64,000 nucleotides of DNA, taken from assembly GCA_002794785.1 (NCBI GenBank), contig NBBA01000003.1, forward strand, positions 2,170,001-2,234,000. The letters are read 5' to 3'. The stretch comes from Coniferiporia sulphurascens (lineage: Eukaryota > Basidiomycota > Agaricomycetes > Hymenochaetales > Hymenochaetaceae). Positions 17,084 to 41,870 of the stretch are shown one piece after another (positions within the stretch are counted from its first letter, which is position 1; each line of letters opens with the position of its first letter). Under the pieces are notes generated by a model that saw nothing but the letters and a program-made list of their open reading frames with translations, ran no database searches and was not told the DNA's origin. Position numbers and translations under genes: made by a program.

Positions 17084-17122
<39 letters not shown>

Positions 17123-20100
17123 CTGCAGTATTACATAATTACAAGCTGCCCCCCCAAAGGGGGGGCCCTAACTACATAACCACGGAGGCACCCATCATTG
17201 TGCATCGCACAAAACTGGGTGGGGGCTCTGCTCCCTGAGGGGTGCCAATGTGTGAAGAGCCCCTATTTGGTGATGAGACTGAGAGAGGGAGGGATACATA
17301 TCGCTATGAACAAACCAGGCGGTTGAGGGCAGGTTAAAGTAGGAAGCTTAGAAGTGGAAAGGGAGGGTGAGAGTGCCAGCCAGGACGTATCATGGGGGAT
17401 ACTGAAAGGCAGGCTTTACTTGAGCAGAAAAGGAGGGAGTGTACCTGAGAGCTCCAAAAGGGCTGGGTCCGAGTCCTGGGTTCAGGGTCCAAGCATACAA
17501 CGCATGTAGTCCCGTAGGAGGTCCAAGTCCATATCCTTGTTGGTGGAGTGCCCATCGAGGTCCATCGCGGCAAACAATAGCTGGATGGCACCTGCGGCAT
17601 GGTCGGAAAGGCAGTTAAGGTGCCCCATCGGCTTTAGCCAGCAGCACAAAACCGGTAGGTGGTTTTCGTCAGCCCACTCTGAGTGGTGGACTGGGAGAGG
17701 GTCCCAAGGTGGCCACACACGTCGTATCCACGGATGGAAGGTGCTACAGCCGCCAAGGATGTGTGCGGTAAACTGTGTGGGCCAGGGGGGGTGGTTGTGC
17801 CATCTGCAGTGTGAGATCAGGCCATGCTTGCATTGGTAAGCTGAGTTGAAACTCAGCCAGTATCCCCCGTAGGGACCTGCATGGCAGAGGACCTGAGCTA
17901 CTGCAGATAGCTTGCTGCATGGGTGGTCGACTGAGTGCATGAGGAGCTTATGTGGTCGGCGTGAAGGTAGGCCATGGACTGCCAGGTATTTATTGGCAGT
18001 CGAGGCAAGGGGGCAGGCTAGTGAGAGCATCCATCATTCCATGAGGGTGTGAATGGCGACCTCTTTCAAGGCAAAGGTGGAAGGTTTGAGGTCAGATGGG
18101 GGGAGCTTGGTCGCCAGCTTTGCTTCCGTGTCAGCCCATTCATTTCTGGGGATGTCCAAGTGTCCAGGACACCATATGAAATGGATGGTGAGCTGGGGGA
18201 ATGAATCTAGCAGAGTCTCCACACCCACTTTCCAAATGTGGAGGAGGTGGGCGCCCAGAGCGGTGGCCCAAGTTTGGAAAAGGTGGAGGGCAGTCAGCGA
18301 ATTGGACAGAAAGAAGATGTCCGATGTGATGCGCAGTTGAGCTGGGAGACGGCGTGCTACCCAGCCCGGGGCCGTAGCGAGGGAGAACTCCTTGGTGTCC
18401 GTAGCTGTGGCACAGGTGGGGGACTCCAGTCGGTGTGACTGGAGTTGGGTGTTGCCCAGCATTGCACAGATGGCTGAGCCCGACTTATTGTCAATGCAGG
18501 AGCCGTCTGTGAATACCTGGACATGGGGGGTGGAGCTTAGTTGGCGCACGGCTGTTATGAATGATCTTCGAGTGTCAGTGCTAACCAGGGTGATGGGGGT
18601 GGTAAAGCGAACCTGGCCCTTCATGAATGCCAGGGGGTCCGTCCATGGGGGATGCGTGTATGCAGGGACCTGTTGAACCCGAGGGGCTTGGACCTGCAGA
18701 GAAAGGGAGAAGGGTCTATTAGTTACATTTTTAAAAAGTTTGCAGCCAACGGAGTGCGGGGTGCGCCAGAGACTCAGAGAATGGGTTGTCTTTATATATT
18801 CAAAATAGAAAGAGAGAGGGGGAATGGAGCAGAGAAAATTAGTGGAATGGGGGGAGGCGCCTTTGAAGACGCCCAAGATCCAGTGGCAGGCTGTGTTTTG
18901 TACCACCTGCAGGCAGTTTACCAGGGTTTTTTGGTGGCAGCCATGGTACCAGACTGGCGCTCCCCATGACAGGATGGAGCGAACACAGGAGGTGTATAGG
19001 TGGCGAAGTAGAAGGGCCGATATGCCACGTTGGGTGTTACCTAGTATGCGGAGTGCGGCGAGGGTGGAGAGCCCTTTGGAGCGCATGCACTCAACATGGG
19101 GCTTGAAGGAGAGGCCTGGGTCCCACCATATCCCCAGCCACCAGAGTGGGATTGAGGGGCGGATGAGGGTGTTGGGGTCAACCTGTACGCCGGCAGTGTC
19201 CCAGCCATTGTAGCCGGTGTGTCACTGAGGGGGGCAGAAGTGGAGACACTCTGTCTTGGCAGCTTCAATGTTGAGACCGATGGTGCCGAAGAGGGTGTCA
19301 AGTTGTTGGTAGGTGCGTGCTAGCTCGCGGCAGTTGGATGCTACAGAGGGTCCTACACAGATCAGTAAGTGGTCGTCTACATATGCCAGGGCAGTGGTGC
19401 CGGCTTGGTGAAAGTGCCAGAGGACCACCCCTGCGAATATAGTTGACAGGATGGGGGAGACTGGCGATCCCTGGGGGGTGCTGAGGTCAGGTTTAGGGGC
19501 GGTTGGGAGGGTGGTGCCATCAAAGGCAATGGCTACCTGCTGATCCATCATGAAGGACAGACACCAGTCGGCCATGTCTGGGGCGCAACCAAGGTCCAGT
19601 AGTTGTCAGTGGAGGAGCTGTGGGTGCACCGAGTCGAAGAAACCTTGTATGTCGACTGCTAGGACCGAGCACACATGGCCCTCTGAGTGGGCGCGTTCTG
19701 CAATCTGTAGAAGGTGTTGGGCAGCGTCATAGACCGAATGGCCCTGGTGCCCCCCATATTGGTTAGGTGGCAGCCAGTCCCTCATGTTTGCGAGGTACTG
19801 GAGCCAGTTAGTGATAATTTTTTTCGAGGAGTTTCCCTAGGGTCTCCTTGAGGGTGATGGGCCAGTATGAGCATGGCGAAAAGGGGTCCTTCTTGTTTGG
19901 CTTCCGGAGCATTACTACTTTTGCCGCCTGCCAGCATTCAGGGTGGTGCCCCAAGCGCAAGCAGTCATTGAAAAGTGTAAGAATCTTGTCGGGGTAGGCA
20001 TCCACCACCCATTTCAGGGGGCAGTAGCCTATTCCTGAGAGGCCTGGAGCCAACAAGTTGGATGTGTTGGACAGTGCCCCCATTAGCTCCGCAAGGAGTA

Positions 20101-20297
20101 TGGGCAGGGCAGCTGGTTGGGGTGGTGGCAGCAGGGTGTTGGCCACTGCCTGGGGTGGGGGGGGCATGAAGAAAGTTTCGCAGAAAAGCTCACCTTTCTC
20201 CTCGTCCGTTTGGGTGAAGGTACCATCGTGCTGTTTCAGCGATGGGATGGGTGTGGGTCGGTTGCCGAGGCCATGCTTGGCCCAGTTCCAGATGTTT
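17084..20297 (-). mobile_element. 5'-truncated A LINE L2
   Basis: Tail of (ATT)n on the plus strand at 17084-17120, then 3' UTR, C-terminal region, RNase H and RT. It is truncated at the linker before RT (sense start AACATCTGGAACTGGGCC). The flanking repeat GGAYGGATCC (17074-17083, 20298-20307) is the likely target duplication. From 17116 inward it forms the outer half of palindrome 1's left arm. Its twin is at 30744-33924. Confidence 0.88.
17416..20297 (-). pseudogene. L2 ORF2 remnant: RT, RNase H, C-terminus
   Basis: Pieces on the minus strand are RT N-terminal 20167-19808 (AKVVMLRKPNKKD), RT core 19575-19222 (TPQGSPVSPILSTIFAG, ALAYVDDH) and RT end plus RNase H 19086-18034 (FTDGSCIDNKSGSAIC, KEFSLAT, SNSLTALH, PGHLDIPRNEWAD). 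C-terminus 18030-17482 follows (HGLISHCRWHNHPPW). Stops near 19617, 18031 and 17479 and the T-run frameshift near 19820 inactivate it. Most stops correspond to arginine codons elsewhere. The SNS change removes one RNase H Asp (SDS in other copies). Confidence 0.83.
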
Positions 20298-20731
20298 GGA
20301 CGGATCCTCTGGCATTTACAAATGGAAGAGTTTCATTTGCCACTCCTATCACTCTGGTCAGCAAAGACACCCGCAAGGAATTTGTGGGCACCACGAGCTC
20401 CCTGAGCACCCTTCACCATCTCCAGGTTTTCACTGATGGCTCACACATCGGCTCAAAATCTGGTTCAGCTGTCTGTGTCATGAAGGGCCTCACCTGCCTC
20501 AAATCTCGCTGGCTGGCCTCCCCTACCTGTGTGACAGCAATGGACGCAGAAATTTTCTCCCTTACCTCTGCTCCAAGCTGGGCCATGCACCACCTCCAGG
20601 AGCACTTGCCTGTCGCATCCGACATCTTCTTTTTGTTGGATTCACTGATGGCACTCCACCTGATCCACACATGGGCACCAGTTCCAGGTGCACATCTCCT
20701 TCACCAATGGAAGGCAGGGGTCCAGACTCTA
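20298..20731 (+). pseudogene. LINE copy K, RNase H fragment (second piece)
   Basis: Resumes K after L2: ATTTACAAATGGAAGAG, then HHLQVFTDGSHIGSKSGSAVC, AEIFSLTSAPSW, LLDSLMALHLI and HQWKAGVQTL. The third RNase H motif reads LLDS instead of LSDS. The frame is open up to the solo LTR at 20732 and continues behind it at 20989. The mirror copy is at 30310-30743. Confidence 0.82.
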
Positions 20732-20988
20732 TCTTAAAATCTATGCACTTGGTGGTAGATAATGAGGTGCAGTGGTAAAGTAGAGGCGAAGGCGAGTTAT
20801 CAGCGTAAACCGATGTATTTCATGGTAGAGACCAGCTCTCCTTATATACATCTACCGTGAGCTACATATACTATAACTATCATAGCTCCTATTCATATGG
20901 CATCATCATTGCATTGTCGTTCACTTAGTAAGGTGGTTGTTCATATGACCATGTTTATATTTAGTATGTTCGTTATATTTATTTAATA
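20732..20988 (-). mobile_element. Solo LTR of the copia family
   Basis: 257 bp, reverse orientation, from TCTTAAAATCTATGC to TTATTTAATA. It is clearly related to the copia LTRs at 5453 and 10638 but diverged, with small indels. It has a 5-bp target duplication, CTCTA, at 20727-20731 and 20989-20993. No internal element is present, so it is the product of LTR-LTR recombination. Its mirror copy is at 30053-30309. Confidence 0.92.
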
Positions 20989-21281
20989 CTCTATTGGACT
21001 CATACCCGAATCTCTCTGTTCATTTTGTCTGGTGCCCGGGTCACTCTGACATCCCTGGGAATGAATGGGCAGACCACAAGGCGAAGTTCGCGACAAACCT
21101 ACCCCCATCTCCACTTGCACCCTCCACCTCTGCACTGAAAGAGGCCGCAGTTGCCACTCTAATGGAGTGCTGGTCCCTCTCACTTGCCTGCCCACTCACC
21201 TCAATGGCCAATAAATACTTAGCTGTCAATGGGGTCCCCTCCTGCCACCCCCAAAAGCTACTCATGCAATCGGTGGACCAC
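20989..21281 (+). pseudogene. LINE copy K, end of RNase H domain (third piece)
   Basis: Continues the RNase H frame: YPNLSVHFVWCPGHSDIPGNEWADHKAKF, here including the PGHS and EWAD active-site region, then NKYLAVNGVPSCHP and MQSVDH. It stops at the 5' end of H at 21282. Joined across the LTR, the frame is uninterrupted. No K sequence is recognised on the other side of H. Confidence 0.8.
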
Positions 21282-23249
21282 CATCCTTCTTGACCAGTAA
21301 CCACCATCATCTCACTAGTGTGGGCAGCTAAAACTCCCCCATGTCAGATTATTGTGGTGCCCTTCGTTGCACAAGACCTACTGTCCCCTCGTCCTCATTG
21401 GCTAGCCTAGCCACTGCAAGGGCCGCCAAAATGGCCGCCAACCTGGCTGCCGAAGCCCTCGTTGCCGCTCAATGCGAAACGACCCCCATACCCTACACCC
21501 AACCCACCACCCCTGCCCCAGAATCGTCCCCAGACGCCCCCCGCCTCGCCCCATCCCCCGCCCTAGGCATCTCAAACGCGGCTTTCACCAGCATGTTTGA
21601 GCAGTTCAGCAGCTGCCCCCCATCCGCCGCCTCCAATGTCACTGAACCCCATGAGTACAACAAAGGAAACAAAGAGGATTACACCCCCAACCAGGACCCC
21701 CCTTACCGGACACCCTCACCTGCCATGTCACAAAAGCGGGACACAACAGCCCTGTTGCCCCACACCCCCTGCCCCCACCCAAGCATGGCTCACAGCCCAC
21801 TGGACGGTTTTCTGGACGCCATCACTGATCTGCGCTCCGGCTACTTTGAAGCTGTGGCCAACACCACCCCCAGCGAAAGCCACAAACAAGCGGCAGCGCA
21901 ACTTCTTGGGCAGACAGCATATGTTGTGCTCAAGACACTCGACGCCCTCCACAGGGCCAGGAAGGATGACCTCCACCCGACAAGGGCGATGTTCGATGTG
22001 ATCGTCGCCTACCAGCACACAGGGGAGGGGGGTTTCGACCTCCCATACCCCTTCCAGCCAGCTCGCCCCCAGGAACGGCCCCAGGTCACCACCAGGACCC
22101 CTGCCACCAACCCCATGACCCCGGAGATGAAGGCGCTGACTGATGCAGTCAAACGCCTGACTACTGACGTGGCTTCTATTTCTCGTCAGATGTCCTCCCT
22201 CAGCTCTAGGCCCGCCCCCCATCAACAGCAACAGCAACAGCAACAGCCCACCCCTCAGGCAACAATACCAAGCACCCCCACCTCCTATGCCCAGGTAGCG
22301 GCAGCAGCAGCCCCTCCAACATCCACCAACCCCACCCCAGCAGCACCCGCAACTGGGGCAGTCATCAACCTGGTGCCACAAAAGAAGAAGAAGCACATGC
22401 AGAAGGTGCCCCCCCTGCCCACCATGTATGCCAAGGACCCAACACTGGTCCTATCACCGGTCGCCGGCCTTGCAGCACACCTCCAGAAACCTGCCATGGT
22501 CCTCACAAAAATAGCACATGATTTCTTTGCCTCTCTCCCTACTGTGGACCAAGTCACAGTTCTCTCCTCCTCATTCAATGTGAAGGGGAACCTCATGACC
22601 ACGTTTGCACAGCAACCATACTCAGCTAACCCCTCCACAGCCACGATAATTGACCGGCATGCGGAGGCTTATACACACCACATGCGCGACAGGTGCACTA
22701 CCAAGGGAGCCGAGGCCCCCAAGGTATTCAAACTGACCCCCTCCCACATTCAGCCTAGGTCCTCCTTGTGGATTTTGATGGTACCCTGCAAGGACTACCA
22801 CTTCGGCCAGAACGAGCACACCATCTCCAAGGCCGTCCTCCTGGCCAAAGTCACCAACAACCTGTCACTTCGGCTCCTGGACTTCGTAGTCACCCCCCAC
22901 TTTGCCGCAACCCCTGAACACCTGCCCTCCCTGAGCAAGTGCCCAGTGGCTTTCTCCTTCGTCAACCCCAACAGGTCCATCCAAGAGTGCCTCCTTAAGC
23001 GCCCTCGGGTTTGGCTCTTTGGCTCCTCCCTACACCTCTCCACACCACCCGTACACCCCAGCCTCACCCAATGTGAGTGCTGCCAAGGCCTCGGACATGG
23101 AATGAAGGGGTGCCATGCCCAAGCCTGCTGCGTGGACTGCGGGGGTAATCACCTTACCCACAACCACTGCAAGAACTGTGCCCACTGTGCCACCGACGCC
23201 ACGGCCGAAGCCGACCCATGCCCCCACCCTCACCACTGCACCAACTGCA
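21282..23249 (+). mobile_element. A LINE H, piece 1 of 4: 5' end and ORF1
   Basis: The 5' end is CATCCTTCTTGACCAGTAACC at 21282 and the leader runs to ATG 21341. The piece ends at CTGCACCAACTGCA (23236-23249), which recurs at 33946-33959. H then continues GAGGCGACCACC in the same ORF1 frame. The whole H totals about 6.4 kb over pieces 21282-23249, 33946-35748, 42185-43169 and 52616-54293. There is no target duplication at its own ends: the 5' flank is K and the 3' flank is B2. Confidence 0.9.
21341..23249 (+). CDS. H ORF1, gag-like protein, open up to the L3 insertion
   Basis: About 636 codons without a stop, starting MSDYCGALRC. Order: Ala/Pro-rich N-terminus, a helical segment (NTTPSESHKQAAAQLLGQTA), SISRQMSS, a Gln run (CAA/CAG repeat near 22230), SYAQVAAAAAPPT, KKKKHMQKVPPLP, YAKDPTLVL, SSFNVKGNLMTTFAQQP and then the knuckles CECCQGLGHGMKGC, CCVDCGGNHLTHNHC and CPHPHHCTNC. 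The reading frame resumes at 33960 (RGDHPTTLLSCPKKKRYRQIL) and ends MEES at the TGA 34067-34069. This is the best preserved ORF1 in the window. A mirror copy is at 29700-27792. Confidence 0.88.
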
Positions 23250-23566
23250 CATCCTTCTTGACCAGTAACCACCACCATTGACTAGTGCAGGCAGCTAAAA
23301 CTCCCCCATGTTGAACCCAGGCAATTACAGGAATACTCTCCATTGGACAACCTGAACCAACCCCCCACCTGCCCCACTGGCCAATGCTGACCCCGACAGG
23401 GTCGCCAGGATGGCCACTAACTGGGCCTCCATGGGCGCCGCCGCAGCTGCGAGGCACGGTACCCCTGCCCCCACCACCCCCCAACAGGCACCCCTGTCCG
23501 AATTTCTGCCACTGACATCCTCCCCAGACGTCCTGGCACCATCCCTGGCCATCAGTGACTCACAAC
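23250..23566 (+). pseudogene. L3 5' end and start of ORF1
   Basis: Leader, then ATG about 23310 (MLNPGNYRNTLHW) with an early stop, then ARMATNWASMGAAAAARHG and SLAISDSQ. It breaks at GACTCACAAC (23557-23566). The ORF1 sequence that should follow (LISAYDFTTQVRTES) is found on the minus strand starting at 25943. This shows that the segment between has been inverted. Confidence 0.85.
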
Positions 23567-23882
23567 TTTTTTATTTTTATTTTTATTTTTACTATTATTC
23601 CTGCAGTATTACATAATTACAAGCTGCCCCCCTGAAGGGGGGGCCCTAACTACATAACAACAGAGGCGCCCGTCATCGCACAACACACAAAACTGGGCGG
23701 GGGCCCTGCTCCCCAAGGGGGGCCAGAGTGGGAAGGGCCCCTATTAGTACAATGAAAGAAAGAGGGGGGAATACGTGTCACTACAGCCAGGCCAAACGGA
23801 CGACATCAGGCAAAAGGGGGTAGCTTAGAAATGGAAAGGGGGGGCAAGAGCGCCAGCCGGGACATACGTGGGGGAGTCCGAA
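23567..23882 (-). other. LINE-type 3' UTR and tail, inner end of palindrome 1 left arm
   Basis: Minus-strand A-type 3' UTR (hairpin II, TACTGCAGGAATAATAGT) with a tail of AAAAAT units. It is the exact mirror of the NA1 3' UTR at 27159-27474. It ends at GTCCGAA, where the left sequence continues as the L3 C-terminal region and the right sequence as the NA body. Confidence 0.85.
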
Positions 23883-25943
23883 AGACATTCACAGAGCAGA
23901 GGAAAAGGGAGGAAGCGCACCTGAAAGCTCCAAGAGAGCCAGGTCCGGGTCCTGGGTACAGGTTCCAAGCATATGACTCATGTATTCCCTGAGGAGGTCC
24001 AAGTCCATATCTTCGTTGGTCAGGTGCCCCTCTAGCTCCATCGTGGCAAAAGCCAGACGGATGGAGGCGGAGGTGTGGTCAGAAAAGCGGTTAAGGTGCC
24101 CTGTCAGCTTAAGCCAGCGGCACAGAACCTGTAGGCGGTTTTCATTGGCCCATTTGGCATGGTGGGTTGGGAGTGGGTCTCGGGGGGGCCAGACCCTATG
24201 GATCCAGGGACGGAAAGTGCAACATCCACCCATTATGTGGGCGGTCGACTGGGCTGGCCAGGGGGGGTGGTTGTGCCATCGGCAGTGCGAGATCAGGCCG
24301 TGCCTGTGTCGGTAGGCTGAGTCAAAGCTCAGCCAGTAACCCCCATAGGGACTGGCATGGCATAGAACCTGGGCGACTGCAGAGAGCTCCCGGTGAGGGT
24401 GGTCCACTGACTGCATCATGAGTTTTCAGGGATGGCGAGAGGGGACACCGTTGACAGCTAGATATTTATTGGCTGACGAGGCGAGGGGACGGGCGAGAGA
24501 AAGGGTCCATCGCTCCATGAGGGTTTTGACAGCAACCTCTTTCAGTGCAGAGGTGGAGGGTGCGAGGGGAGACAGGGGGAGATTCGTTGTGAACTTCACC
24601 TTGTGGTCTGCCCATTCATTCCCTGGGATGTCCGAGTGACCTGGGCACCAGACAAAATGAACGGAAAGATCCGGGTAAGAGTCCAAGAGGGTCTGGACTG
24701 CTGCCTTCCATTGGTGAAGGAGACGCATGCCTGGGACCGGTGCCCATGTTCGGATCAGGTGGAGTGCCATCAGCGAATCTGACAAAAAGAAGATGTCAGA
24801 TGCGACAGGCAGACGCTCCTGGAGGTGGTGTGCGGCCCAGCTAGGCACAGAGGTGAGAGAGAAGATTTCTGCATCCGTAGCTGTGGCACAGATGGGGGAG
24901 GCAAGCCGGTGAGACTTGAGGCGGGTAAGGCCTTCCATGGTGCAGACCACTGAACCGGATTTTGAGCCGATGCAGGAGCCATCGGTGAAGACCTGGAGAT
25001 GGGGGAGGGTGCTCAGGGAGCACGCTGCACCCACAAATTCTTTGCAGGTGTCCTCGCTGACCGGAGTGATAGGAGTGGCAAATGAGACTCGACCATTCAT
25101 AAATGCCAGAGGATCCGTCCACGGGGGATGAGTGTATGGGGGCCACTGGAGCTGGGTTGTTGGTTGTTGGGGGGGCTGCAGCTGTGGCTACTTGCACATA
25201 GGAGGTGGGGCGGTCTGGGTGGCGGCCTGTGGGGCGGGTTGCTGTTGTTGTTGTTGTTGTTGTTGTTGCTGTTGTTGATGGGGGGCGGGCCTAGAGCTGA
25301 TGGAAGCCATCTGATGTGAAATAGAAGCTACGTCAGTTGTCAGGCACTTGACTGCATCTGTCAGCGCCTTCATTTCTGGGGTTACGGGGGTGGTGCTAGG
25401 GGTCCCGGTGGTGACCGGGGCCCTTTGGGGGGGGGTGAGCTGGGGTGAAGGGTTCTGGGAGGGCGATTACCGCCCCCTCCCTTGTGAAGTTGTAGGCCAT
25501 CACCGCATTGCGGTAGATGATGTTCTGTGGGTATGTCCTGTCTTGCTCAATGTTGGCCAGCATTCGTTGGATGTTCCATAGGAGGTCTCCCACAAACTGC
25601 ATGGCCTTGATGTCAATCGTCTCAGTGGTGGTGTCCCTGGTTTGCTGGTCGAAGTTGTCCAGGGCACAGGTGAGGGAGTACATGATCCCTGCAGTGTGCT
25701 GTTCATGTTGTTGGGCGGGGGGTCCTCTCAGGGTGAGCATAGCAGCCAAGGAGTGTTTCCGCTCGAGGCTTGCGCCTCCCACCTGTTGCGGGGGGGTATG
25801 GGGGTCAACCGCCATTGCTGGGGCTGTCTCACCGGTTTCGATGGAGCCATGGATCGACCCTACCGAGGCGGCTGGGGAGCCGACTCGGGATGCTGCCCTG
25901 GATTCCGTGCGCACTTGGGTGGTGAAGTCGTAGGCCGAGATCA
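23883..25943 (-). pseudogene. L3 body: internally deleted ORF1 fused to ORF2 RNase H
   Basis: On the minus strand from 25943: ORF1 (LISAYDFTTQVRTESRAAS, FVGDLLWNIQRML, YNFTREGAV, SISHQMAS, a Gln run at 25238-25280, YVQVATAA) to PAPVAP near 25137. It then passes directly into RNase H (SPVDG, FTDGSCIGSKSGS, AEIFSLT, LSDSLMALHLI, PGHSDIPGNEWAD) and the C-terminus (HGLISHCRWHNHPPW ... PPFSSAL) ending at 23889. About 3.4 kb including all of EN and RT are missing. A stop at 24420 corresponds to an arginine codon elsewhere. Deletion by template jump during reverse transcription is a likely cause. Confidence 0.85.
25238..25280. repeat. Trinucleotide (CAA/CAG, minus strand) poly-Gln tract
   Basis: A run of GTTGTT/GCT units on the plus strand encodes about 13 Gln on the minus strand in ORF1 of L3. 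A shorter equivalent tract is in H ORF1 (22225-22250) and its mirror (28793-28818). Length differs between copies, as expected for a microsatellite. Confidence 0.8.
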
Positions 25944-25953
25944 GTTGTGAGTC

Positions 25954-27474
25954 GCCATCCTTCTTGTCCTCTTACCACCACCATCTCTGGTTTTCACTGG
26001 GGGTCATCTGGGGGTTCATTGCAGCAACCCATGCTCTGGTCTGGTATTCTACTGGGTCAACATGAGAGAAGGCTACCAACTGCACACCTTTTATAAAGGA
26101 GTGCTGCTTGCTGGTCACTGAGGTGCTGTAGCGGCGTTGTCTGATGGCGCGAAAGGGGCTCACACCCACCAGGGGGCATGCAACCCATCGATAACGTTGC
26201 ATTGGGGGGGGGGATGGCTCGGTGAGTACAAGATCCTCTCTCACGTCTGCTGTGCTCTCTCGGGGCATGGTGCTTGGCTGGTCCGCCTCCCGGTGGCGCA
26301 AGGGGCACATGCCTGCCAGTCGGGGGGGGACACGACATTAATGTCCCCACACCTGTGCAGGGGGGGTAACCCTCTGCCCATCAGCGGTCGGCTTCGGTCG
26401 GGAGACCTCGGGTTTGGGGAAACTCGGATCTAACCTTCAGGTTGTGCCTTTGGGCATGGGGCCACATTGTCCTTGGCATGACAAATCATAAAAACGGCCG
26501 CCCCAAATCCTGAAAGGGTCTCTGATGACAGCACTAGTTGCTATAAGGGGATAGGGGCTTCTTAACACATGGGCTTGAAGGGCAAAAACCAACCGACTCG
26601 AAAGAGACAGGTCACCATGGGCCCCTGGGGTAGATGATTCACTCTCACTCAGTGGGTGGTTAGTCAAGCAGACTCCCTGGCAGCCTCGAAAGAGATAGGC
26701 CGGGGTCCAAGCCTCTGGCAACACGGTAACTCCGGTATGCTGCGGATCCAGAAGTGGGGCCTAGGCCCTGAGTATTCACCAGGGCAACTCGGTCTCTGAA
26801 GCACATGCCGGGGAACAGGAAACTCTGGGGGTGGGTGTGGAACCCTGCCCCCACTATGGAGCGGGCTGTAGCGGTGGGGGGTAGTTCCCTCTACTGGCTC
26901 CAGAGCACTAAATCTGCTGTGGGTTCGCATAGGAGTAAGTCCTACTGCGGGCTTGAGTTGATTCCCAACAGCTAGCCACACTCCATACACACTCACAGGG
27001 ATGCCGCCGGCACTCCCTTTGCATTGAGGAGGACAGCGTATCATGCCGTTTAAAAACTCCCGCCCTCTGACATATGGGGTGGGTACCCTTTTAAGGGGGC
27101 GATGTTATGAGGAAGGTGTAGGCAAATGTGGGCCCCGCAAGGGCGCCCTTAATGTTGGTTCGGACTCCCCCACGTATGTCCCGGCTGGCGCTCTTGCCCC
27201 CCCTTTCCATTTCTAAGCTACCCCCTTTTGCCTGATGTCGTCCGTTTGGCCTGGCTGTAGTGACACGTATTCCCCCCTCTTTCTTTCATTGTACTAATAG
27301 GGGCCCTTCCCACTCTGGCCCCCCTTGGGGAGCAGGGCCCCCGCCCAGTTTTGTGTGTTGTGCGATGACGGGCGCCTCTGTTGTTATGTAGTTAGGGCCC
27401 CCCCTTCAGGGGGGCAGCTTGTAATTATGTAATACTGCAGGAATAATAGTAAAAATAAAAATAAAAATAAAAAA
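25954..27474 (+). mobile_element. Chimeric non-autonomous retroposon NA, copy 1
   Basis: A 1.52 kb element flanked by GTTGTGAGTC at 25944-25953 and 27475-27484. Its first 30 nt (CATCCTTCTTGTCCTCTTAC, then CACCACCATC) match the A LINE 5' end at about 26 of 30 positions. From about 27159 to the tail it is an A LINE 3' UTR with hairpins. The roughly 1.17 kb between is unlike any LINE part here and has no convincing ORF. A second copy (60043-61909) has the same layout, different tail repeats and its own duplication, so the unit has moved at least twice. It is presumably mobilised by A LINE proteins. Confidence 0.85.
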
Positions 27475-27791
27475 GTTGTGAGTCACTGATGGCCAGGGAT
27501 GGTGCCAGGACGTCTGGGGAGGATGTCAGTGGCAGAAATTCGGACAGGGGTGCCTGTTGGGGGGTGGTGGGGGCAGGGGTACCGTGCCTCGCAGCTGCGG
27601 CGGCGCCCATGGAGGCCCAGTTAGTGGCCATCCTGGCGACCCTGTCGGGGTCAGCATTGGCCAGTGGGGCAGGTGGGGGGTTGGTTCAGGTTGTCCAATG
27701 GAGAGTATTCCTGTAATTGCCTGGGTTCAACATGGGGGAGTTTTAGCTGCCTGCACTAGTCAATGGTGGTGGTTACTGGTCAAGAAGGATG
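27475..27791 (-). pseudogene. Mirror copy of L3 5' end and ORF1 start
   Basis: Reverse complement of 23250-23566 with identical translation in the corresponding frames. It starts with the right duplication of NA1 (GTTGTGAGTC) and ends at the L3 5' end CATCCTTCTTG (minus strand, 27791). Confidence 0.88.
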
Positions 27792-29759
27792 TGCAGTTGG
27801 TGCAGTGGTGAGGGTGGGGGCATGGGTCGGCTTCGGCCGTGGCGTCGGTGGCACAGTGGGCACAGTTCTTGCAGTGGTTGTGGGTAAGGTGATTACCCCC
27901 GCAGTCCACGCAGCAGGCTTGGGCATGGCACCCCTTCATTCCATGTCCGAGGCCTTGGCAGCACTCACATTGGGTGAGGCTGGGGTGTACGGGTGGTGTG
28001 GAGAGGTGTAGGGAGGAGCCAAAGAGCCAAACCCGAGGGCGCTTAAGGAGGCACTCTTGGATGGACCTGTTGGGGTTGACGAAGGAGAAAGCCACTGGGC
28101 ACTTGCTCAGGGAGGGCAGGTGTTCAGGGGTTGCGGCAAAGTGGGGGGTGACTACGAAGTCCAGGAGCCGAAGTGACAGGTTGTTGGTGACTTTGGCCAG
28201 GAGGACGGCCTTGGAGATGGTGTGCTCGTTCTGGCCGAAGTGGTAGTCCTTGCAGGGTACCATCAAAATCCACAAGGAGGACCTAGGCTGAATGTGGGAG
28301 GGGGTCAGTTTGAATACCTTGGGGGCCTCGGCTCCCTTGGTAGTGCACCTGTCGCGCATGTGGTGTGTATAAGCCTCCGCATGCCGGTCAATTATCGTGG
28401 CTGTGGAGGGGTTAGCTGAGTATGGTTGCTGTGCAAACGTGGTCATGAGGTTCCCCTTCACATTGAATGAGGAGGAGAGAACTGTGACTTGGTCCACAGT
28501 AGGGAGAGAGGCAAAGAAATCATGTGCTATTTTTGTGAGGACCATGGCAGGTTTCTGGAGGTGTGCTGCAAGGCCGGCGACCGGTGATAGGACCAGTGTT
28601 GGGTCCTTGGCATACATGGTGGGCAGGGGGGGCACCTTCTGCATGTGCTTCTTCTTCTTTTGTGGCACCAGGTTGATGACTGCCCCAGTTGCGGGTGCTG
28701 CTGGGGTGGGGTTGGTGGATGTTGGAGGGGCTGCTGCTGCCGCTACCTGGGCATAGGAGGTGGGGGTGCTTGGTATTGTTGCCTGAGGGGTGGGCTGTTG
28801 CTGTTGCTGTTGCTGTTGATGGGGGGCGGGCCTAGAGCTGAGGGAGGACATCTGACGAGAAATAGAAGCCACGTCAGTAGTCAGGCGTTTGACTGCATCA
28901 GTCAGCGCCTTCATCTCCGGGGTCATGGGGTTGGTGGCAGGGGTCCTGGTGGTGACCTGGGGCCGTTCCTGGGGGCGAGCTGGCTGGAAGGGGTATGGGA
29001 GGTCGAAACCCCCCTCCCCTGTGTGCTGGTAGGCGACGATCACATCGAACATCGCCCTTGTCGGGTGGAGGTCATCCTTCCTGGCCCTGTGGAGGGCGTC
29101 GAGTGTCTTGAGCACAACATATGCTGTCTGCCCAAGAAGTTGCGCTGCCGCTTGTTTGTGGCTTTCGCTGGGGGTGGTGTTGGCCACAGCTTCAAAGTAG
29201 CCGGAGCGCAGATCAGTGATGGCGTCCAGAAAACCGTCCAGTGGGCTGTGAGCCATGCTTGGGTGGGGGCAGGGGGTGTGGGGCAACAGGGCTGTTGTGT
29301 CCCGCTTTTGTGACATGGCAGGTGAGGGTGTCCGGTAAGGGGGGTCCTGGTTGGGGGTGTAATCCTCTTTGTTTCCTTTGTTGTACTCATGGGGTTCAGT
29401 GACATTGGAGGCGGCGGATGGGGGGCAGCTGCTGAACTGCTCAAACATGCTGGTGAAAGCCGCGTTTGAGATGCCTAGGGCGGGGGATGGGGCGAGGCGG
29501 GGGGCGTCTGGGGACGATTCTGGGGCAGGGGTGGTGGGTTGGGTGTAGGGTATGGGGGTCGTTTCGCATTGAGCGGCAACGAGGGCTTCGGCAGCCAGGT
29601 TGGCGGCCATTTTGGCGGCCCTTGCAGTGGCTAGGCTAGCCAATGAGGACGAGGGGACAGTAGGTCTTGTGCAACGAAGGGCACCACAATAATCTGACAT
29701 GGGGGAGTTTTAGCTGCCCACACTAGTGAGATGATGGTGGTTACTGGTCAAGAAGGATG
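27792..29759 (-). pseudogene. Mirror copy of H piece 1 with open ORF1
   Basis: Reverse complement of 21282-23249. The ORF1 frame 29700-27792 is open and identical in translation to 21341-23249. It is followed by unrelated L3 leader instead of the true ORF1 end, so it lacks the last knuckle and cannot lead into an ORF2. It is a duplicate, not an independent insertion, because both its flanks are also mirrored. Confidence 0.88.
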
Positions 29760-30743
29760 GTGGTCCACCGATTGCATGAGTAGCTTTTGGGGGTGGCAGG
29801 AGGGGACCCCATTGACAGCTAAGTATTTATTGGCCATTGAGGTGAGTGGGCAGGCAAGTGAGAGGGACCAGCACTCCATTAGAGTGGCAACTGCGGCCTC
29901 TTTCAGTGCAGAGGTGGAGGGTGCAAGTGGAGATGGGGGTAGGTTTGTCGCGAACTTCGCCTTGTGGTCTGCCCATTCATTCCCAGGGATGTCAGAGTGA
30001 CCCGGGCACCAGACAAAATGAACAGAGAGATTCGGGTATGAGTCCAATAGAGTATTAAATAAATATAACGAACATACTAAATATAAACATGGTCATATGA
30101 ACAACCACCTTACTAAGTGAACGACAATGCAATGATGATGCCATATGAATAGGAGCTATGATAGTTATAGTATATGTAGCTCACGGTAGATGTATATAAG
30201 GAGAGCTGGTCTCTACCATGAAATACATCGGTTTACGCTGATAACTCGCCTTCGCCTCTACTTTACCACTGCACCTCATTATCTACCACCAAGTGCATAG
30301 ATTTTAAGATAGAGTCTGGACCCCTGCCTTCCATTGGTGAAGGAGATGTGCACCTGGAACTGGTGCCCATGTGTGGATCAGGTGGAGTGCCATCAGTGAA
30401 TCCAACAAAAAGAAGATGTCGGATGCGACAGGCAAGTGCTCCTGGAGGTGGTGCATGGCCCAGCTTGGAGCAGAGGTAAGGGAGAAAATTTCTGCGTCCA
30501 TTGCTGTCACACAGGTAGGGGAGGCCAGCCAGCGAGATTTGAGGCAGGTGAGGCCCTTCATGACACAGACAGCTGAACCAGATTTTGAGCCGATGTGTGA
30601 GCCATCAGTGAAAACCTGGAGATGGTGAAGGGTGCTCAGGGAGCTCGTGGTGCCCACAAATTCCTTGCGGGTGTCTTTGCTGACCAGAGTGATAGGAGTG
30701 GCAAATGAAACTCTTCCATTTGTAAATGCCAGAGGATCCGTCC
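29760..30743 (-). pseudogene. Mirror copy of K RNase H with solo LTR inside
   Basis: 29760-30052 and 30310-30743 repeat K on the minus strand (FTDGSHIGSKSGS, LLDSLMALH, PGHSDIPGNEWAD). The copia solo LTR lies between them at 30053-30309. Translations equal those of the left arm. It ends at GGATCCGTCC, where the L2 copy starts. Confidence 0.87.
30053..30309 (+). mobile_element. Mirror copy of the solo copia LTR
   Basis: Starts TATTAAATAAATATAACG at 30053 and ends ATTTTAAGA at 30309, with TAGAG on both sides as the mirrored 5-bp duplication. It contains the TATA-like GTATATAAGG near 30192. It is part of the palindrome 1 duplication rather than a new insertion. Confidence 0.9.
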
Positions 30744-33624
30744 AAACATCTGGAACTGGGCCAAGCATGGCCTCGGCAACCGACCCACACCCATCCCATC
30801 GCTGAAACAGCACGATGGTACCTTCACCCAAACGGACGAGGAGAAAGGTGAGCTTTTCTGCGAAACTTTCTTCATGCCCCCCCCACCCCAGGCAGTGGCC
30901 AACACCCTGCTGCCACCACCCCAACCAGCTGCCCTGCCCATACTCCTTGCGGAGCTAATGGGGGCACTGTCCAACACATCCAACTTGTTGGCTCCAGGCC
31001 TCTCAGGAATAGGCTACTGCCCCCTGAAATGGGTGGTGGATGCCTACCCCGACAAGATTCTTACACTTTTCAATGACTGCTTGCGCTTGGGGCACCACCC
31101 TGAATGCTGGCAGGCGGCAAAAGTAGTAATGCTCCGGAAGCCAAACAAGAAGGACCCCTTTTCGCCATGCTCATACTGGCCCATCACCCTCAAGGAGACC
31201 CTAGGGAAACTCCTCGAAAAAATTATCACTAACTGGCTCCAGTACCTCGCAAACATGAGGGACTGGCTGCCACCTAACCAATATGGGGGGCACCAGGGCC
31301 ATTCGGTCTATGACGCTGCCCAACACCTTCTACAGATTGCAGAACGCGCCCACTCAGAGGGCCATGTGTGCTCGGTCCTAGCAGTCGACATACAAGGTTT
31401 CTTCGACTCGGTGCACCCACAGCTCCTCCACTGACAACTACTGGACCTTGGTTGCGCCCCAGACATGGCCGACTGGTGTCTGTCCTTCATGATGGATCAG
31501 CAGGTAGCCATTGCCTTTGATGGCACCACCCTCCCAACCGCCCCTAAACCTGACCTCAGCACCCCCCAGGGATCGCCAGTCTCCCCCATCCTGTCAACTA
31601 TATTCGCAGGGGTGGTCCTCTGGCACTTTCACCAAGCCGGCACCACTGCCCTGGCATATGTAGACGACCACTTACTGATCTGTGTAGGACCCTCTGTAGC
31701 ATCCAACTGCCGCGAGCTAGCACGCACCTACCAACAACTTGACACCCTCTTCGGCACCATCGGTCTCAACATTGAAGCTGCCAAGACAGAGTGTCTCCAC
31801 TTCTGCCCCCCTCAGTGACACACCGGCTACAATGGCTGGGACACTGCCGGCGTACAGGTTGACCCCAACACCCTCATCCGCCCCTCAATCCCACTCTGGT
31901 GGCTGGGGATATGGTGGGACCCAGGCCTCTCCTTCAAGCCCCATGTTGAGTGCATGCGCTCCAAAGGGCTCTCCACCCTCGCCGCACTCCGCATACTAGG
32001 TAACACCCAACGTGGCATATCGGCCCTTCTACTTCGCCACCTATACACCTCCTGTGTTCGCTCCATCCTGTCATGGGGAGCGCCAGTCTGGTACCATGGC
32101 TGCCACCAAAAAACCCTGGTAAACTGCCTGCAGGTGGTACAAAACACAGCCTGCCACTGGATCTTGGGCGTCTTCAAAGGCGCCTCCCCCCATTCCACTA
32201 ATTTTCTCTGCTCCATTCCCCCTCTCTCTTTCTATTTTGAATATATAAAGACAACCCATTCTCTGAGTCTCTGGCGCACCCCGCACTCCGTTGGCTGCAA
32301 ACTTTTTAAAAATGTAACTAATAGACCCTTCTCCCTTTCTCTGCAGGTCCAAGCCCCTCGGGTTCAACAGGTCCCTGCATACACGCATCCCCCATGGACG
32401 GACCCCCTGGCATTCATGAAGGGCCAGGTTCGCTTTACCACCCCCATCACCCTGGTTAGCACTGACACTCGAAGATCATTCATAACAGCCGTGCGCCAAC
32501 TAAGCTCCACCCCCCATGTCCAGGTATTCACAGACGGCTCCTGCATTGACAATAAGTCGGGCTCAGCCATCTGTGCAATGCTGGGCAACACCCAACTCCA
32601 GTCACACCGACTGGAGTCCCCCACCTGTGCCACAGCTACGGACACCAAGGAGTTCTCCCTCGCTACGGCCCCGGGCTGGGTAGCACGCCGTCTCCCAGCT
32701 CAACTGCGCATCACATCGGACATCTTCTTTCTGTCCAATTCGCTGACTGCCCTCCACCTTTTCCAAACTTGGGCCACCGCTCTGGGCGCCCACCTCCTCC
32801 ACATTTGGAAAGTGGGTGTGGAGACTCTGCTAGATTCATTCCCCCAGCTCACCATCCATTTCATATGGTGTCCTGGACACTTGGACATCCCCAGAAATGA
32901 ATGGGCTGACACGGAAGCAAAGCTGGCGACCAAGCTCCCCCCATCTGACCTCAAACCTTCCACCTTTGCCTTGAAAGAGGTCGCCATTCACACCCTCATG
33001 GAATGATGGATGCTCTCACTAGCCTGCCCCCTTGCCTCGACTGCCAATAAATACCTGGCAGTCCATGGCCTACCTTCACGCCGACCACATAAGCTCCTCA
33101 TGCACTCAGTCGACCACCCATGCAGCGAGCTATCTGCAGTAGCTCAGGTCCTCTGCCATGCAGGTCCCTACGGGGGATACTGGCTGAGTTTCAACTCAGC
33201 TTACCAATGCAAGCATGGCCTGATCTCACACTGCAGATGGCACAACCACCCCCCCTGGCCCACACAGTTTACCGCACACATCCTTGGCGGCTGTAGCACC
33301 TTCCATCCGTGGATACGACGTGTGTGGCCACCTTGGGACCCTCTCCCAGTCCACCACTCAGAGTGGGCTGACGAAAACCACCTACCGGTTTTGTGCTGCT
33401 GGCTAAAGCCGATGGGGCACCTTAACTGCCTTTCCGACCATGCCGCAGGTGCCATCCAGCTATTGTTTGCCGCGATGGACCTCGATGGGCACTCCACCAA
33501 CAAGGATATGGACTTGGACCTCCTACGGGACTACATGCGTTGTATGCTTGGACCCTGAACCCAGGACTCGGACCCAGCCCTTTTGGAGCTCTCAGGTACA
33601 CTCCCTCCTTTTCTGCTCAAGTAA
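30744..33624 (+). pseudogene. Mirror copy of L2 ORF2: RT, RNase H, C-terminus
   Basis: Plus-strand pieces: 30874-31434 RT (AKVVMLRKPNKKD, NQYGGHQGHSVYDAAQHL, VDIQGFFDSVHP; one base shorter A-run than the left arm, hence in frame here), 31465-31818 (TPQGSPVSPIL, AYVDDH), 31954-33006 (RT end, RNase H) and 33010-33558 (C-terminus). The stops at 31432, 31816, 33004 and 33556 are shared with the left arm. The A-run near 31220 shows that the left-arm frameshift arose after duplication. Confidence 0.86.
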
Positions 33625-33945
33625 AGCCTGCCTTTCAGTATCCCCCATGATACGTCCTGGCTGGCACTCTCACCCTCCCTTTCCACTTCTAAGCTTCCTA
33701 CTTTAACCTGCCCTCAACCGCCTGGTTTGTTCATAGCGATATGTATCCCTCCCTCTCTCAGTCTCATCACCAAATAGGGGCTCTTCACACATTGGCACCC
33801 CTCAGGGAGCAGAGCCCCCACCCAGTTTTGTGCGATGCACAATGATGGGTGCCTCCGTGGTTATGTAGTTAGGGCCCCCCCTTTGGGGGGGCAGCTTGTA
33901 ATTATGTAATACTGCAGGAATAATTTTAAAAAAAAAAAAAAAAAA
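33625..33945 (+). other. 3' UTR, hairpin II and tail at the L3 right end
   Basis: A-type UTR with hairpin II around 33871-33891 (C-run, TTTG, G-run), then TACTGCAGGAATAAT, TTTT and an A-run to 33945. The last bases and the following CTGCACCAACTGCA belong to L3, while the UTR upstream matches L2. The switch point between the two is hidden in their shared sequence. Confidence 0.78.
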
Positions 33946-35748
33946 CTGCACCAACTGCAGAGGCGACCACCCCACCACCCTCCTGTCCTGCCCCAAGAAG
34001 AAGCGATACCGCCAAATCCTGGAGGCCTTTGGGGATGAGCCCACCCTCGAACAGATGGAGGAATCATGATTGGAGACATCTCCATCATGCAGTGGAATGC
34101 CACCTGCTCACTCATGGCGATAAATTCCCTGATTCCGCTCCTCACTGACTCCCCTTCACCACCACACCTTATTCTTATTCAGGAACCACCCTGGTACCAA
34201 ATAGGCCTGCAACCATCCCTCACCTACCCAACTGGTACACCAGTGCTCAATGTCCCCAACATCCCAGGCTACACACTGGTCCTACCCCCCAACACACACC
34301 CTCGGGTAGTCACTTATGTGGCACACTCCCTCCCCCCAACTTCATGGTCAGTGCTCAGAACAGCCTCACATGGCACTGACATCCTCACTGTGGAAATCCG
34401 ATCCTCCCTCACAATCCGGGTGTGCAACTACTACGGCATGTCACCCCCGGACCGGACCGGGGCCACCCCCCAATACCCAGGTGAGCTCTTTCTTTTCTCA
34501 CTCCCCTTGGCAATAGCCACTACCCTCCTTGTGGCGGGCGACTTCAACCGTCGCCACCCCACATGGTCCGAACTCCCCGCCTCACGGACAGAGGAACTGA
34601 GGGCCCAACCCCTTGACGACTTTTTCCGTGGGCACGGCCTAGCACCTGCCCACTTACCGGACTCGGACTCAAGGCCTGACGGCAACCGCCTTAGGTGCCC
34701 CATAGACATGATCTGGGCCCCCCCCTCTGTTAACCCTGACACCATTTTGGATTTGGCAACCTCCAACCTCTCCCCACTGTCAGACCATGCAATCCTACGC
34801 TGGTCAATCCCCTTTCGGCCCCCACCTCCGGTCCTCAAGACCCGCAGGCTCACACCAGTGGACAAAGAGGAGTGGACCAACATCGCCTTCCCTCTACTGG
34901 ACCTCGCCTTCAACCTCCCGGTCGGTGACACCCTCACCCTGGACAACAAGGCCGAAGCCGTGGTGACAGCCATGGTGATGGCCCTCGAGCCCTTCACCCG
35001 CCTCTCGAAACCGTCGAAAACGGAGGTCCCTTGGTGGACGCCAACATGCAAAAACCTACTGACCAACATCACGATGGCTACCTCCCCCCTCCAATGAGTG
35101 TCAGCAAGACGCACTTTCAAGTGCGGAGTGCACACAGCCAAACAACAGTTTTACGCTGACCAGGCGGCCGAAGCGGATGCCTCCAACATCTGGACCTGGG
35201 CCAAAAGGGGCCTAGGCACCCACCCTACACCCATCCTGTCCCTCAGAAAGCAGGATGGCACCTTCACCCAGTCAGACGATGAGAAAGGTGAGTTATTTTG
35301 GGAAACTTTCTTCAGTCCTCCCCCCCCCATGCAAGCGGACCCAAACCCGCCACCACCACCCCAACCAGCTGCCCCACCGATACTCCTCAGCGAGCTTATG
35401 GGGGCACTGGCCGATACCTCCAACTTGTCAGCTCCGGGCCTCTCGGGAATAGGCTATTGCCCCCTGAAATGGGTGGTGGAAGCCTACCCTGATGAGATTC
35501 TAATGCTTTTCAATGACTGTCTCCGCTTGGGGCACCACCCCAAACGTTGGCGGGCAGCAAAAGTGGTTATGCTCTGGAAGCCAAACAAGAAGGACCCTTT
35601 CTCACCGCATTCATACAGGCCCATCACCCTTGAGGAGACCCTAGGGAAGCTTCTCGAAAAGATAATAGCTAACAGGCTCCAGTTCCTCACCAACAAGCGG
35701 GACTGGCTGCCACCTAACCAGTATGGGGGGTGTCAAGGACATTCAGTC
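33946..35748 (+). mobile_element. A LINE H, piece 2: end of ORF1, EN, first half of RT
   Basis: Begins with the target duplication CTGCACCAACTGCA and completes ORF1 (RGDHPTTLLSCPKKK to MEES, stop TGA 34067-34069). ORF2 starts at ATG 34066. It ends at GGACATTCAGTC (35737-35748), which is repeated at 42185-42196 behind L4. Confidence 0.88.
34066..35748 (+). pseudogene. H ORF2, EN and RT N-terminal part
   Basis: MIGDISIMQWNATCSL, LIQEPPWYQIGLQPSL, CNYYGMSPPDR, VAGDFNRRHPTWSE, CPIDMIW and SDHAILRWSIPF, then the linker (ADASNIWTWAKRGLG) and RT (AKVVMLWKPNKKD, SYRPITLEETLGKLLEK, NQYGGCQGHSV). A single stop, TGA 35095, interrupts an otherwise continuous frame. It lies in an arginine context. Continues in frame at 42185 with GHSVYDTAQHLLQ. 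Confidence 0.87.
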
Positions 35749-35813
35749 CGTTTCTCATCCTTCTTGACCAGTAACCACCACCATCGACTAGTGTGGGCAG
35801 CTAAAACTCCCCC

Positions 35814-40800: not shown

Positions 40801-41870
40801 TGGCTCAGCTGTCTGCACCATGGAAGGCCTGACCCACCTCAAGTCATGCCGACTAGCCTCCCCCACCTGTGCTACAGCTACAGATGCGGAAATCTTTTCT
40901 CTCACCTCCACACCAAGCTGGGCAGCACACCACCTATGGGAGCTCCTGCCTGTCGCATCCGACATCTTTTTTCTGTTGGATTTGCTGACGGCACTCCACC
41001 TGATCTGCACATGGGCGCCAGTTCCAGGCGCACATCTCCTACACCAATGGAAGGCAGGGGTCCAGACTCTCTTGGACTCATACCCGGCTCTCTCCATTCA
41101 CTTTGTCTGGTGTCCGGGTCACTCCGACATCCCAGGGAATGAATGGGCTGACCATGAGGCAAAGTTTGCAACAAATCTCCCCCCGTCTCCCCTCACACCC
41201 TCCATTTCTGTGTTGAAAGAGACCGCCGTCAACACCCTCATGGAGCAATGGACCCTCTCTCTCGCCCACCCCCTCACCTCAACAGCCGACAAATACTTAG
41301 CTGTCAGCGGCACCCCTTCTCACCATCCCCAAAAGCTCATGACACAGTCGGTCGACCACCCCCACCAGGAGCTCTCTGCAGTCGCCCAGGTTCTATGCCA
41401 TGCCGGTCCCTACGGGGGTTACTGGCTGAGCTTTGACTCAGCCTACTGACACAGGCACGGCCTGATCTCGCACTGCCAATGGCATAACCACCCCCCCTGG
41501 CCAGCCCAGTCGACCACCCATGTCTTGGGTGGATGTCGCACTTTCCGACCCTGGATCTGCAAGGTCTGGCCCCCCTGTGACCCACTTCCAACCCACCATG
41601 CTGAGTGGGCCAATGAAAACCACCTTCAGATTTTGTGCCGCTGGCTTAAGCTGACAGGGCACCTCAACCGCTTCTCTGACTGCACCTCAGCCGCCATCCG
41701 CCTGGCTTTCGCCATGATGGAACTTGAGGGGCACCTGACCGACAAAGATATGGACTTGGACCTCCTCTAGGAATACATGAGTTGTATGCTTGGACCCTGT
41801 ACTCAGGACCCAGACCCGGCTCTATTGGAGCTTTCAGGTGCGCTTCCTCCCTTTCCCTCTGATCTATGAC
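37832..41870 (+). pseudogene. L4 ORF2: EN, RT, RNase H, broken
   Basis: EN: MNRDISILQWNATRSL, LIQEPPWYQIGLQ, then a 31-bp tandem duplication (38090-38120, 38121-38151) that shifts the frame. EN resumes in 38208-39272 (CNFYGMHAPDC, VAGNFNRHHHLW, CPIDMIW). RT 39194-40051 (AKVVMLRKPNKKD, VDIQGFFDSVH, LGTPQGSLVSPIL, ALAYVNDHLL; YVDD is YVND, fitting GTCGAC to GTCAAC). RT end 40358-40543. RNase H 40724-41449 (FTDGSCISSKSGS, AEIFSLT, LLDLLTALH, PGHSDIPGNEWAD). The C-terminus follows to the LSGALPPFPSDL end near 41870. Stops include 40048, 40278 and 41447. Confidence 0.84.

What the first reader, a model, noticed from the sequence alone, without database searches (positions are those of the whole stretch)
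17116..33924. Near-identical 6.77 kb palindrome explained by fold-back repair between LINE 3' UTRs
Arms 17116-23882 and 27159-33924 differ, as far as I can see, by one homopolymer base and one residue. The inner boundary falls exactly where NA1's LINE-type 3' UTR begins. The outer boundary falls in LINE tails. The L3 target duplication still brackets the whole. This suggests a break in the L3 3' UTR, invasion of the oppositely oriented NA1 3' UTR, copying of about 6.7 kb back through H, K, LTR and L2, and closure by annealing of the L2 3' UTR to the L3 3' UTR. Inverted LINE 3' ends then act as seeds of palindromic gene-desert growth.
Basis: partly seen in the sequence, partly recalled or inferred. 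Interest (0 to 1): 0.85.

Follow-up and report, generated by a model that had tools for sequence, protein, structure and literature searches.

The report
Near-identical palindromes in fungal LINE clusters
A 17-kb mirror-image repeat in a fungal gene desert is present in the assembly, its birth can be largely read from nested jumping genes, and it is one of at least eight such pairs found in this genome, where old LINE copies were seen to be near-identical only to a nearby copy in the opposite direction.

Summary
In detail: 17116-23882 and 27159-33924 are inverted arms, 99.97% identical. It is not alone: the window holds a second palindrome (35756-42176/45148-51568) and one arm of a third (921-4809), and I found eight near-identical pairs on four contigs. 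All eight are inverted neighbours. In 244 kb of C3, 4 of 937 inverted and 0 of 892 direct repeat pairs of 300 bp or more reach 97%; elsewhere 4 of 4 inverted and 0 of 5 direct equal-score candidates do. They also imply that the spacer has since flipped. The wider claim, that inverted LINE 3' ends seed palindromes, is partly borne out: palindromes 2 and 3 are inverted LINE pairs alike over exactly their shared length, and the C28 one starts inside a LINE. The host looks like a relative of Coniferiporia. No reads were available, so an assembly error is not excluded.

The parts
17116..23882 (+). left arm of palindrome 1 (6767 bp), read as the arm that keeps the older nested context
27159..33924 (-). 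right arm of palindrome 1 (6766 bp), read as the inverted copy
23883..27158 (.). spacer of palindrome 1 (3276 bp): rest of L3 (-) and body of NA1 (+); inferred to be flipped relative to L3's original orientation
17084..20295 (-). L2, 5'-truncated LINE (ref positions 3218-6416), 3' end at 17116; target duplications TTGGATGGATCC 17072 / TTGGACGGATCC 20296
20296..21282 (+). fragments of an older host LINE (ref 4882-5605), split by a solo copia LTR at about 20732-20989
21282..23249 (+). K part 1: host LINE 5' part (ref 1-360, 1001-1973), open frame of 646 aa 21341-23281
23236..23249 (+). L3 target duplication, left copy CTGCACCAACTGCA
23250..23566 (+). H: 5' part of L3, ends in NA1 target sequence GACTCACAAC (23557-23566)
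25139..25954 (-). continuation of the L3-type element; contiguous with H in other genome copies (NA1 empty site)
25955..27474 (+). NA1, LINE-like element nested in L3; target duplication GTTGTGAGTC at 25944 and 27475; LINE-type 3' UTR from 27159
33925..33959 (+). A-rich tail read as L3's own, followed by the L3 target duplication, right copy (33946-33959)
33960..35744 (+). K part 2 (to ref position 3785)
35756..42176 (+). left arm of palindrome 2 = full-length LINE inserted in K, target duplication GGACATTCAGTC 35737/42185; frames broken (about 5 frame changes and 9 stops)
45148..51568 (-). right arm of palindrome 2 = full-length LINE in element P, no target duplication seen, about 390 bp of target missing if P is one element
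921..4809 (+). right arm of palindrome 3 = 5'-truncated LINE inserted in opposite orientation into the LINE whose 3' part is the left arm (C3:2166378-2170268); target duplications begin CACAATCAG at 907 and 4848

Best explanation
The feature is an inverted duplication born inside a nest of LINE insertions by homology-seeded copying, whose arms or seeds have since recombined. Read from sequence: LINE K was hit by L3 (+), and an L3-type element was hit by NA1 in the opposite sense, which put two LINE-type 3' UTRs in inverted orientation about 3.3 kb apart. Inferred: a break in L3's 3' UTR was repaired by invading NA1's 3' UTR and copying about 6.7 kb outwards (NA1 tail, L3 5' part, K, an older LINE with a solo LTR, L2) until the new strand ended at L2's 3' end and joined L3's remaining 3' end through the terminal block of about 40 bp that the LINE ends share. 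Inferred from collinearity: an odd number of crossovers then flipped the spacer. Arm recombination would also keep the arms alike. The same inverted-only pattern at seven other places suggests a general process in these clusters: nearby inverted LINE copies homogenise by conversion or arise by fold-back repair, and direct copies do not.
For: Arms 99.97% identical over 6767 columns and spanning at least four nested elements, so two independent insertions do not explain them. K collinear across L3; L3 target duplication on both sides; NA1 target duplication and empty site. Arm boundaries at LINE 3' ends and different tails at the two outer ends, (TTA)n and A-rich, as expected if the right tail is L3's own. 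L3's spacer part is minus while its 5' end, tail and K are plus. Eight of eight pairs found at >=97% over >=300 bp are inverted; C3: 4 of 937 inverted, 0 of 892 direct; other contigs: 4 of 4 inverted candidates, 0 of 5 direct. Local inverted pairs (gap to 25 kb, 800 bp or more) in C3: 4 at >=99%, 0 at 97-99%, 2 at 91-97%.
Against: No reads or second strain. L3's original 3' UTR is gone, so the seed is inferred from other LINE and NA1 copies. That the LINE 3' part in the spacer (23883-25138) belongs to L3 rests on position; the C2 relative (L005) does not continue into it in the same orientation. The flip needs one extra event, whose time and route are not shown. C28 shows that palindromes also start away from LINE 3' ends. 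Below the 300-bp cut one direct pair is 98.1% alike (258 bp, C3:2110069/2115250, perhaps an LTR pair). Within 5 kb alone, 4 of 45 inverted against 0 of 32 direct is too few to prove a bias.
Confidence: 0.55

Rival explanations
1. Old inverted duplication kept alike by gene conversion: the palindrome may be old, its near-identity is recent homogenisation, and the original event need not have been the one the reader proposes.
For: The inferred spacer flip means that arms (or seeds) recombined. Palindromes 2 and 3 consist of separately inserted LINEs, at least one partner with its own target duplication, alike over exactly their shared length, and the palindrome 2 arms share their broken frames (about 5 frame changes and 9 stops). 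Few pairs of intermediate identity.
Against: For palindrome 1 the composite arm still needs an inverted segmental duplication, so this rival concerns age and upkeep rather than origin. Fast loss of palindromes would also give the gap in identities.
Confidence: 0.3
2. Assembly artefact: palindromes were made by the assembler or by chimeric fold-back reads in a repeat cluster.
For: No reads were seen. Arm differences outside the palindrome 4 tail are only CpG transitions (10 of 10 SNPs) and gap columns, several in homopolymers, which (recalled) is also an error spectrum of nanopore consensus in methylated DNA.
Against: Spacers of 0.6-5.3 kb in the six that were fully measured, not near zero; boundaries coincide with LINE ends, homology limits and target duplications in palindromes 1-3; eight places on four contigs; palindrome 4 has 5 CpG differences with 19 CpG sites in the arm.
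Confidence: 0.1
3. Sibling insertions or a mobile element with long terminal inverted repeats: the two arms were inserted from one recent source.
For: Palindrome 2 arms are each exactly one full-length LINE.
Against: No other copy seen is as close: best other hits of arm pieces 86-91% over most of the query and 93.8% over 2.1 kb for part of L2; palindrome 2 arms share many frame breaks; palindrome 1 arms are composite; palindrome 2's right copy has no target duplication seen; near-identical pairs were not direct or distant in the data seen.
Confidence: 0.03

Closest known systems
Gene-conversion palindromes of the human Y chromosome (P6; PMC3723533, abstract and section list read)
   Same: Inverted arms above 99.9% identity, conversion tracts of kilobases, rare inversions between arms.
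   Different: Here the arms are decayed LINE copies without host genes, 0.9-6.8 kb, several per genome, on contigs not known to be sex chromosomes; conversion is inferred, not observed.
Inverted-repeat-mediated replicative rearrangement (DUP-TRP/INV-DUP at PLP1; PMC4352052, abstract and section list read)
   Same: Oppositely oriented repeats mediate a replicative template switch that yields an inverted copy; switches in microhomology.
   Different: Scale of 7 kb; seed is a LINE 3' UTR; closure at another LINE 3' end; no flanking direct duplication noticed.
Fold-back inverted duplication at breaks (PMC10622511 and PMC3907307, abstracts and section lists read)
   Same: Inverted copy next to a single-copy spacer that corresponds to a fold-back loop; fits C28, whose spacer is LINE sequence collinear with the right arm.
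   Different: Those studies describe dicentric intermediates; here the products are small and internal.
Inverted-repeat regional centromeres of Candida tropicalis (PMC4741521, abstract and section list read)
   Same: 2-5 kb core flanked by 2-5 kb homogenised inverted repeats; similar size and layout.
   Different: There one unit per centromere, with kinetochore binding shown; here four units in one cluster (C3), made of LINEs, and centromere function untested.

Membership tests
Gene-conversion-maintained palindrome | inverted arms near-identical while other copies of the same repeats are diverged | tested here: met
   99.0-100% in eight pairs; other copies of arm pieces mostly 80-94%, short stretches of about 330-350 bp to 96%
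Gene-conversion-maintained palindrome | arm-arm exchange after formation | tested here: inconclusive
   spacer of palindrome 1 inferred flipped from K/L3/NA1 target duplications, by arms or by seeds; palindromes 2 and 3 look native in orientation
Gene-conversion-maintained palindrome | conversion events seen among individuals | not testable with these tools
   no other strain held
Inverted-repeat-seeded replicative repair | inner boundary in inverted homologous repeats | tested here: met
   palindrome 1: LINE and NA1 3' UTRs; not met for C28
Inverted-repeat-seeded replicative repair | outer junction with homology or microhomology | tested here: met
   eight LINE-type 3' ends compared share exact runs of 38-65 bp with L2 or an NA1 copy; L3's own lost end could not be compared
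Inverted-repeat-seeded replicative repair | unduplicated ancestor or sibling strain | not testable with these tools
   no related genome held for G000
LINE of EN-RT-RNase H type | endonuclease, reverse transcriptase, RNase H domains, target duplications, 3' tails | tested here: met
   PF14529, PF03372, PF00075 in window frames; PF00078 precomputed for three of six related Coniferiporia weirii proteins, not scanned in the window; duplications and tails; clade not tested
Inverted-repeat centromere | kinetochore or CENP-A binding | not testable with these tools
   only position: top hits of ten repeat queries lie on 23 of 31 contigs, within 20-576 kb per contig

The most novel reading that the evidence does not exclude
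The LINE clusters of this fungus, perhaps its centromeres, are shaped by an orientation-selective process that keeps renewing palindromes: LINEs and their non-autonomous relatives share a terminal 3' block of about 40 bp, insert into each other in both orientations, and close inverted pairs can be converted or extended by fold-back repair, so that centromere-like inverted repeats arise and are refreshed from dead retrotransposons.
Probability: 0.2. Interest if true: 0.75.

Novelty: new variant of a known kind. Interest (0 to 1): 0.5.

Why it matters
It gives several cases in one genome of near-identical palindromes made of otherwise old, decayed repeats, with enough nested target duplications to order the steps for the main one. 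The inverted-only rule is a simple, testable signature that separates intrachromatid repair from transposition. If the clusters are centromeres, it would offer a route from retrotransposon graveyards to the inverted repeats known at some fungal centromeres.

Tried and rejected
Sibling LINE insertions were my first reading of palindrome 2, since its arms are exactly one LINE each; rejected because the arms share broken frames and no other copy seen is near. Snap-back of LINE cDNA was considered for palindrome 3 and dropped when target duplications showed the right arm to be an ordinary nested insertion. Direct near-identical pairs were sought as a counter-test: five equal-score direct candidates gave 85.9, 87.4, 94.4, 82.8 and 88.6%. 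tRNA and Rfam scans of the window found nothing. The coincidence of the insertion sites at 45142 and 54292 was not resolved.

C28 and C7a were picked by eye from equal scores before that screen. Two direct pairs (C27, C23) were compared over about 1.0-1.1 kb of 1.4-1.6 kb. The arms on C28, C7 and C18 were not read to all their ends. Frame-break counts come from alignment to unmended natural fragments and are rough: a frame change near the ORF1/ORF2 boundary may be no break; the same count gave 2 and 4, 3 and 7, 1 and 5 (frame changes and stops) for three other LINE stretches. In one search I left out the first 24 bases of the palindrome 4 left arm and the matching right end (the A-rich tail, where one search shows an A/T mismatch and gaps).

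Full report
What is there. The window is G000:C3:2170001-2234000 of a 39.35-Mb genome in 31 contigs. It lies in a LINE-rich cluster (GC about 0.56; CpG observed/expected 0.48 in the window against 1.05 in the gene-rich flank L026-L028). A LINE endonuclease region matches six proteins, all of Coniferiporia weirii, the best two at 58% (only the 7991 candidates sharing most words were scored), and a BTB gene from the flank is 90% identical to a C. weirii protein, so the host is most likely a close relative among the Hymenochaetales. Top hits of ten repeat queries lie on 23 of 31 contigs and, per contig, within spans of 20-576 kb (capped lists, span = first to last hit). That is centromere-like but untested.

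The palindrome. 17116-23882 and 27159-33924 are inverted and 99.97% identical over 6767 columns; one CpG transition and one homopolymer base differ. The spacer is 3276 bp. Mapped on a full-length LINE of the same window (35756-42176, positions 1-6421), each arm holds a truncated LINE L2 (3218-6416), fragments of an older LINE (4882-5605) with a solo copia LTR (86% and 85% to the two LTRs of the copia element at 5447-10897), the 5' part of LINE K, the 5' part of L3 (H), and about 300 bp of LINE-type 3' UTR.

Ordering the events. K is one LINE: 21282-23249 joined to 33960-35744 aligns as a single HSP from position 1001 to 3785 of the reference across the joint, at 71%. L3 interrupts K, with CTGCACCAACTGCA at 23236 and 33946. 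H and 25954-25139 are contiguous at C2 (locus L005, 91%) and in four other places of the C3 stretch (79-84%), which is the empty site of NA1; NA1 carries GTTGTGAGTC on both sides. So NA1 sits in an L3-type element in the opposite sense, and its 3' UTR and L3's 3' UTR were inverted repeats. K, the left target duplication, L3's 5' end, the A-rich tail and the right duplication all say that L3 was plus. Yet the L3 part in the spacer is minus. The simplest reading is that the spacer was flipped by a crossover between the arms or their seeds.

Mechanism. A break in L3's 3' UTR, invasion of NA1's 3' UTR, copying outwards through H, K, the older LINE and L2, and closure at the common LINE 3' end fits the boundaries. 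The longest exact runs that the eight 3' ends compared share with L2 or an NA1 copy are 38-65 bp, and the last bases before the tails look alike in all of them. The different tails at the outer ends, (TTA)n left and A-rich right, fit closure onto L3's own end. The break, invasion and closure are inferred. The nested history is read from sequence, and the flip is inferred from it.

Not alone. In C3:2110001-2354000 four pairs of at least 300 bp reach 97%: the two palindromes of the window, one across its left edge (2166378-2170268/2170921-2174809) and a 0.9-kb one at 2275584-2276502/2278148-2279064. All are inverted with gaps of 0.65-3.3 kb. Of 1829 BLAST pairs, 4 of 937 inverted and 0 of 892 direct reach 97%. 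Within 5 kb the numbers are 4 of 45 inverted and 0 of 32 direct, too few to prove a bias by themselves. Below the length cut a direct pair of 258 bp is 98.1% alike (C3:2110069/2115250, perhaps LTRs), and more distant pairs of either orientation reach 93-96%, among them 2.1 kb of L2 at 93.8%.

A prediction and its control. If neighbours are near-identical they must score alike against any query. Among typed rows of ten searches, same-contig pairs within 30 kb with matching scores and extents formed twelve distinct loci: seven inverted (three of them the window's own) and five direct. I read letters for all nine that lie elsewhere, two of the direct ones in part. The four inverted ones are 100% (C28, 4727 bp), 99.98% (C7, 4767), 99.96% (C7, 2810) and 99.85% (C18, 1974); the five direct ones are 82.8-94.4%. 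By my arithmetic 4 of 4 against 0 of 5 has a one-sided Fisher probability of 1/126. The background of overlapping hit pairs within 30 kb was 90 inverted and 66 direct, palindromes included.

Different births, one outcome. Palindrome 2 is two full-length LINEs, the left with target duplication GGACATTCAGTC, the right without one seen and with about 390 bp of target missing; both carry the same decay, about 5 frame changes and 9 stops, since they differ at one base in the 3' UTR. Palindrome 3 is a LINE nested in opposite sense in another LINE, alike over the whole nested copy. The C28 palindrome looks like a plain fold-back: its 628-bp spacer is LINE sequence collinear with the right arm, and the arms run past the LINE 3' end into a neighbour. 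So inverted LINE 3' ends are one seed among others.

Age and upkeep. In the parts of the eight pairs compared, arms differ in 10 SNPs and 11 gap columns over 32,251 bp, and 10 of 10 SNPs are CpG transitions although 6.5% of bases lie in CpG (the tail of palindrome 4, which holds an A/T mismatch, was left out). Two full-length LINE copies of the window differ at about 15% of aligned sites (936 of 6124) and the copia LTRs at 3.8% (10 of 266). Local inverted pairs of 800 bp or more in C3 are 4 at 99% or more, 0 at 97-99%, 2 at 91-97%; direct ones 0, 0 and 1. Steady birth with slow decay should leave more intermediates, so either the arms convert or palindromes are lost fast. The flip favours conversion. 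CpG and homopolymer differences could in part be consensus errors of methylated DNA.

Known kinds. Y-chromosome palindromes with conversion and rare inversions (PMC3723533), inverted-repeat-mediated triplication (PMC4352052), fold-back duplications (PMC10622511, PMC3907307) and inverted-repeat centromeres (PMC4741521) are the nearest; I read their abstracts and section lists only. Searches of the held library listed (15 of 67, 15 of 394, 15 of 84, 10 of 22,718, 10 of 27, 2 of 2 and 12 of 40 papers) none that by its title or the start of its abstract describes such palindromes in fungal LINE clusters; this is no proof of absence.

Verdict. Observation confirmed. Mechanism for this locus supported in outline, with a missing flip. 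Generalisation partly supported, and joined by an inverted-only near-identity rule. Main open risk: no reads.

Noticed in passing
5166, 17072, 20296: Two LINEs (5178-17069, split by a copia element, and L2 17084-20295) sit at the same target TTGGAYGGATCC, which suggests site preference or repeated use of one nick site.
   Followed up: partly
45142 and 54292: The right LINE of palindrome 2 in element P and LINE K in element Q join at homologous positions (GCCCTYCA...GGCAACAC), from shared ancestry or target preference.
   Followed up: partly
5447-10897: Copia element in pieces (zinc knuckle, integrase and RVT_2 domains in separate frames), LTRs 96.2% alike over 266 bp; AT-rich (GC down to 0.30) against the GC-rich LINEs.
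   Followed up: partly
whole window: CpG observed/expected 0.48 (0.46 in a palindrome 2 arm) against 1.05 in nearby gene-rich sequence, TpG/CpA enriched; points to methylation-driven or RIP-like decay.
   Followed up: partly
21341-23281: Open frame of 646 aa in K without a Pfam match, perhaps LINE ORF1; related copies at 78-90% on many contigs.
   Followed up: no
C7:974765-979835 / 987232-992301; C18:130243-132216 / 154771-156744: Two further palindromes whose arm ends were not read; for C7 the inner 2 kb of each arm rest on equal scores only.
   Followed up: partly
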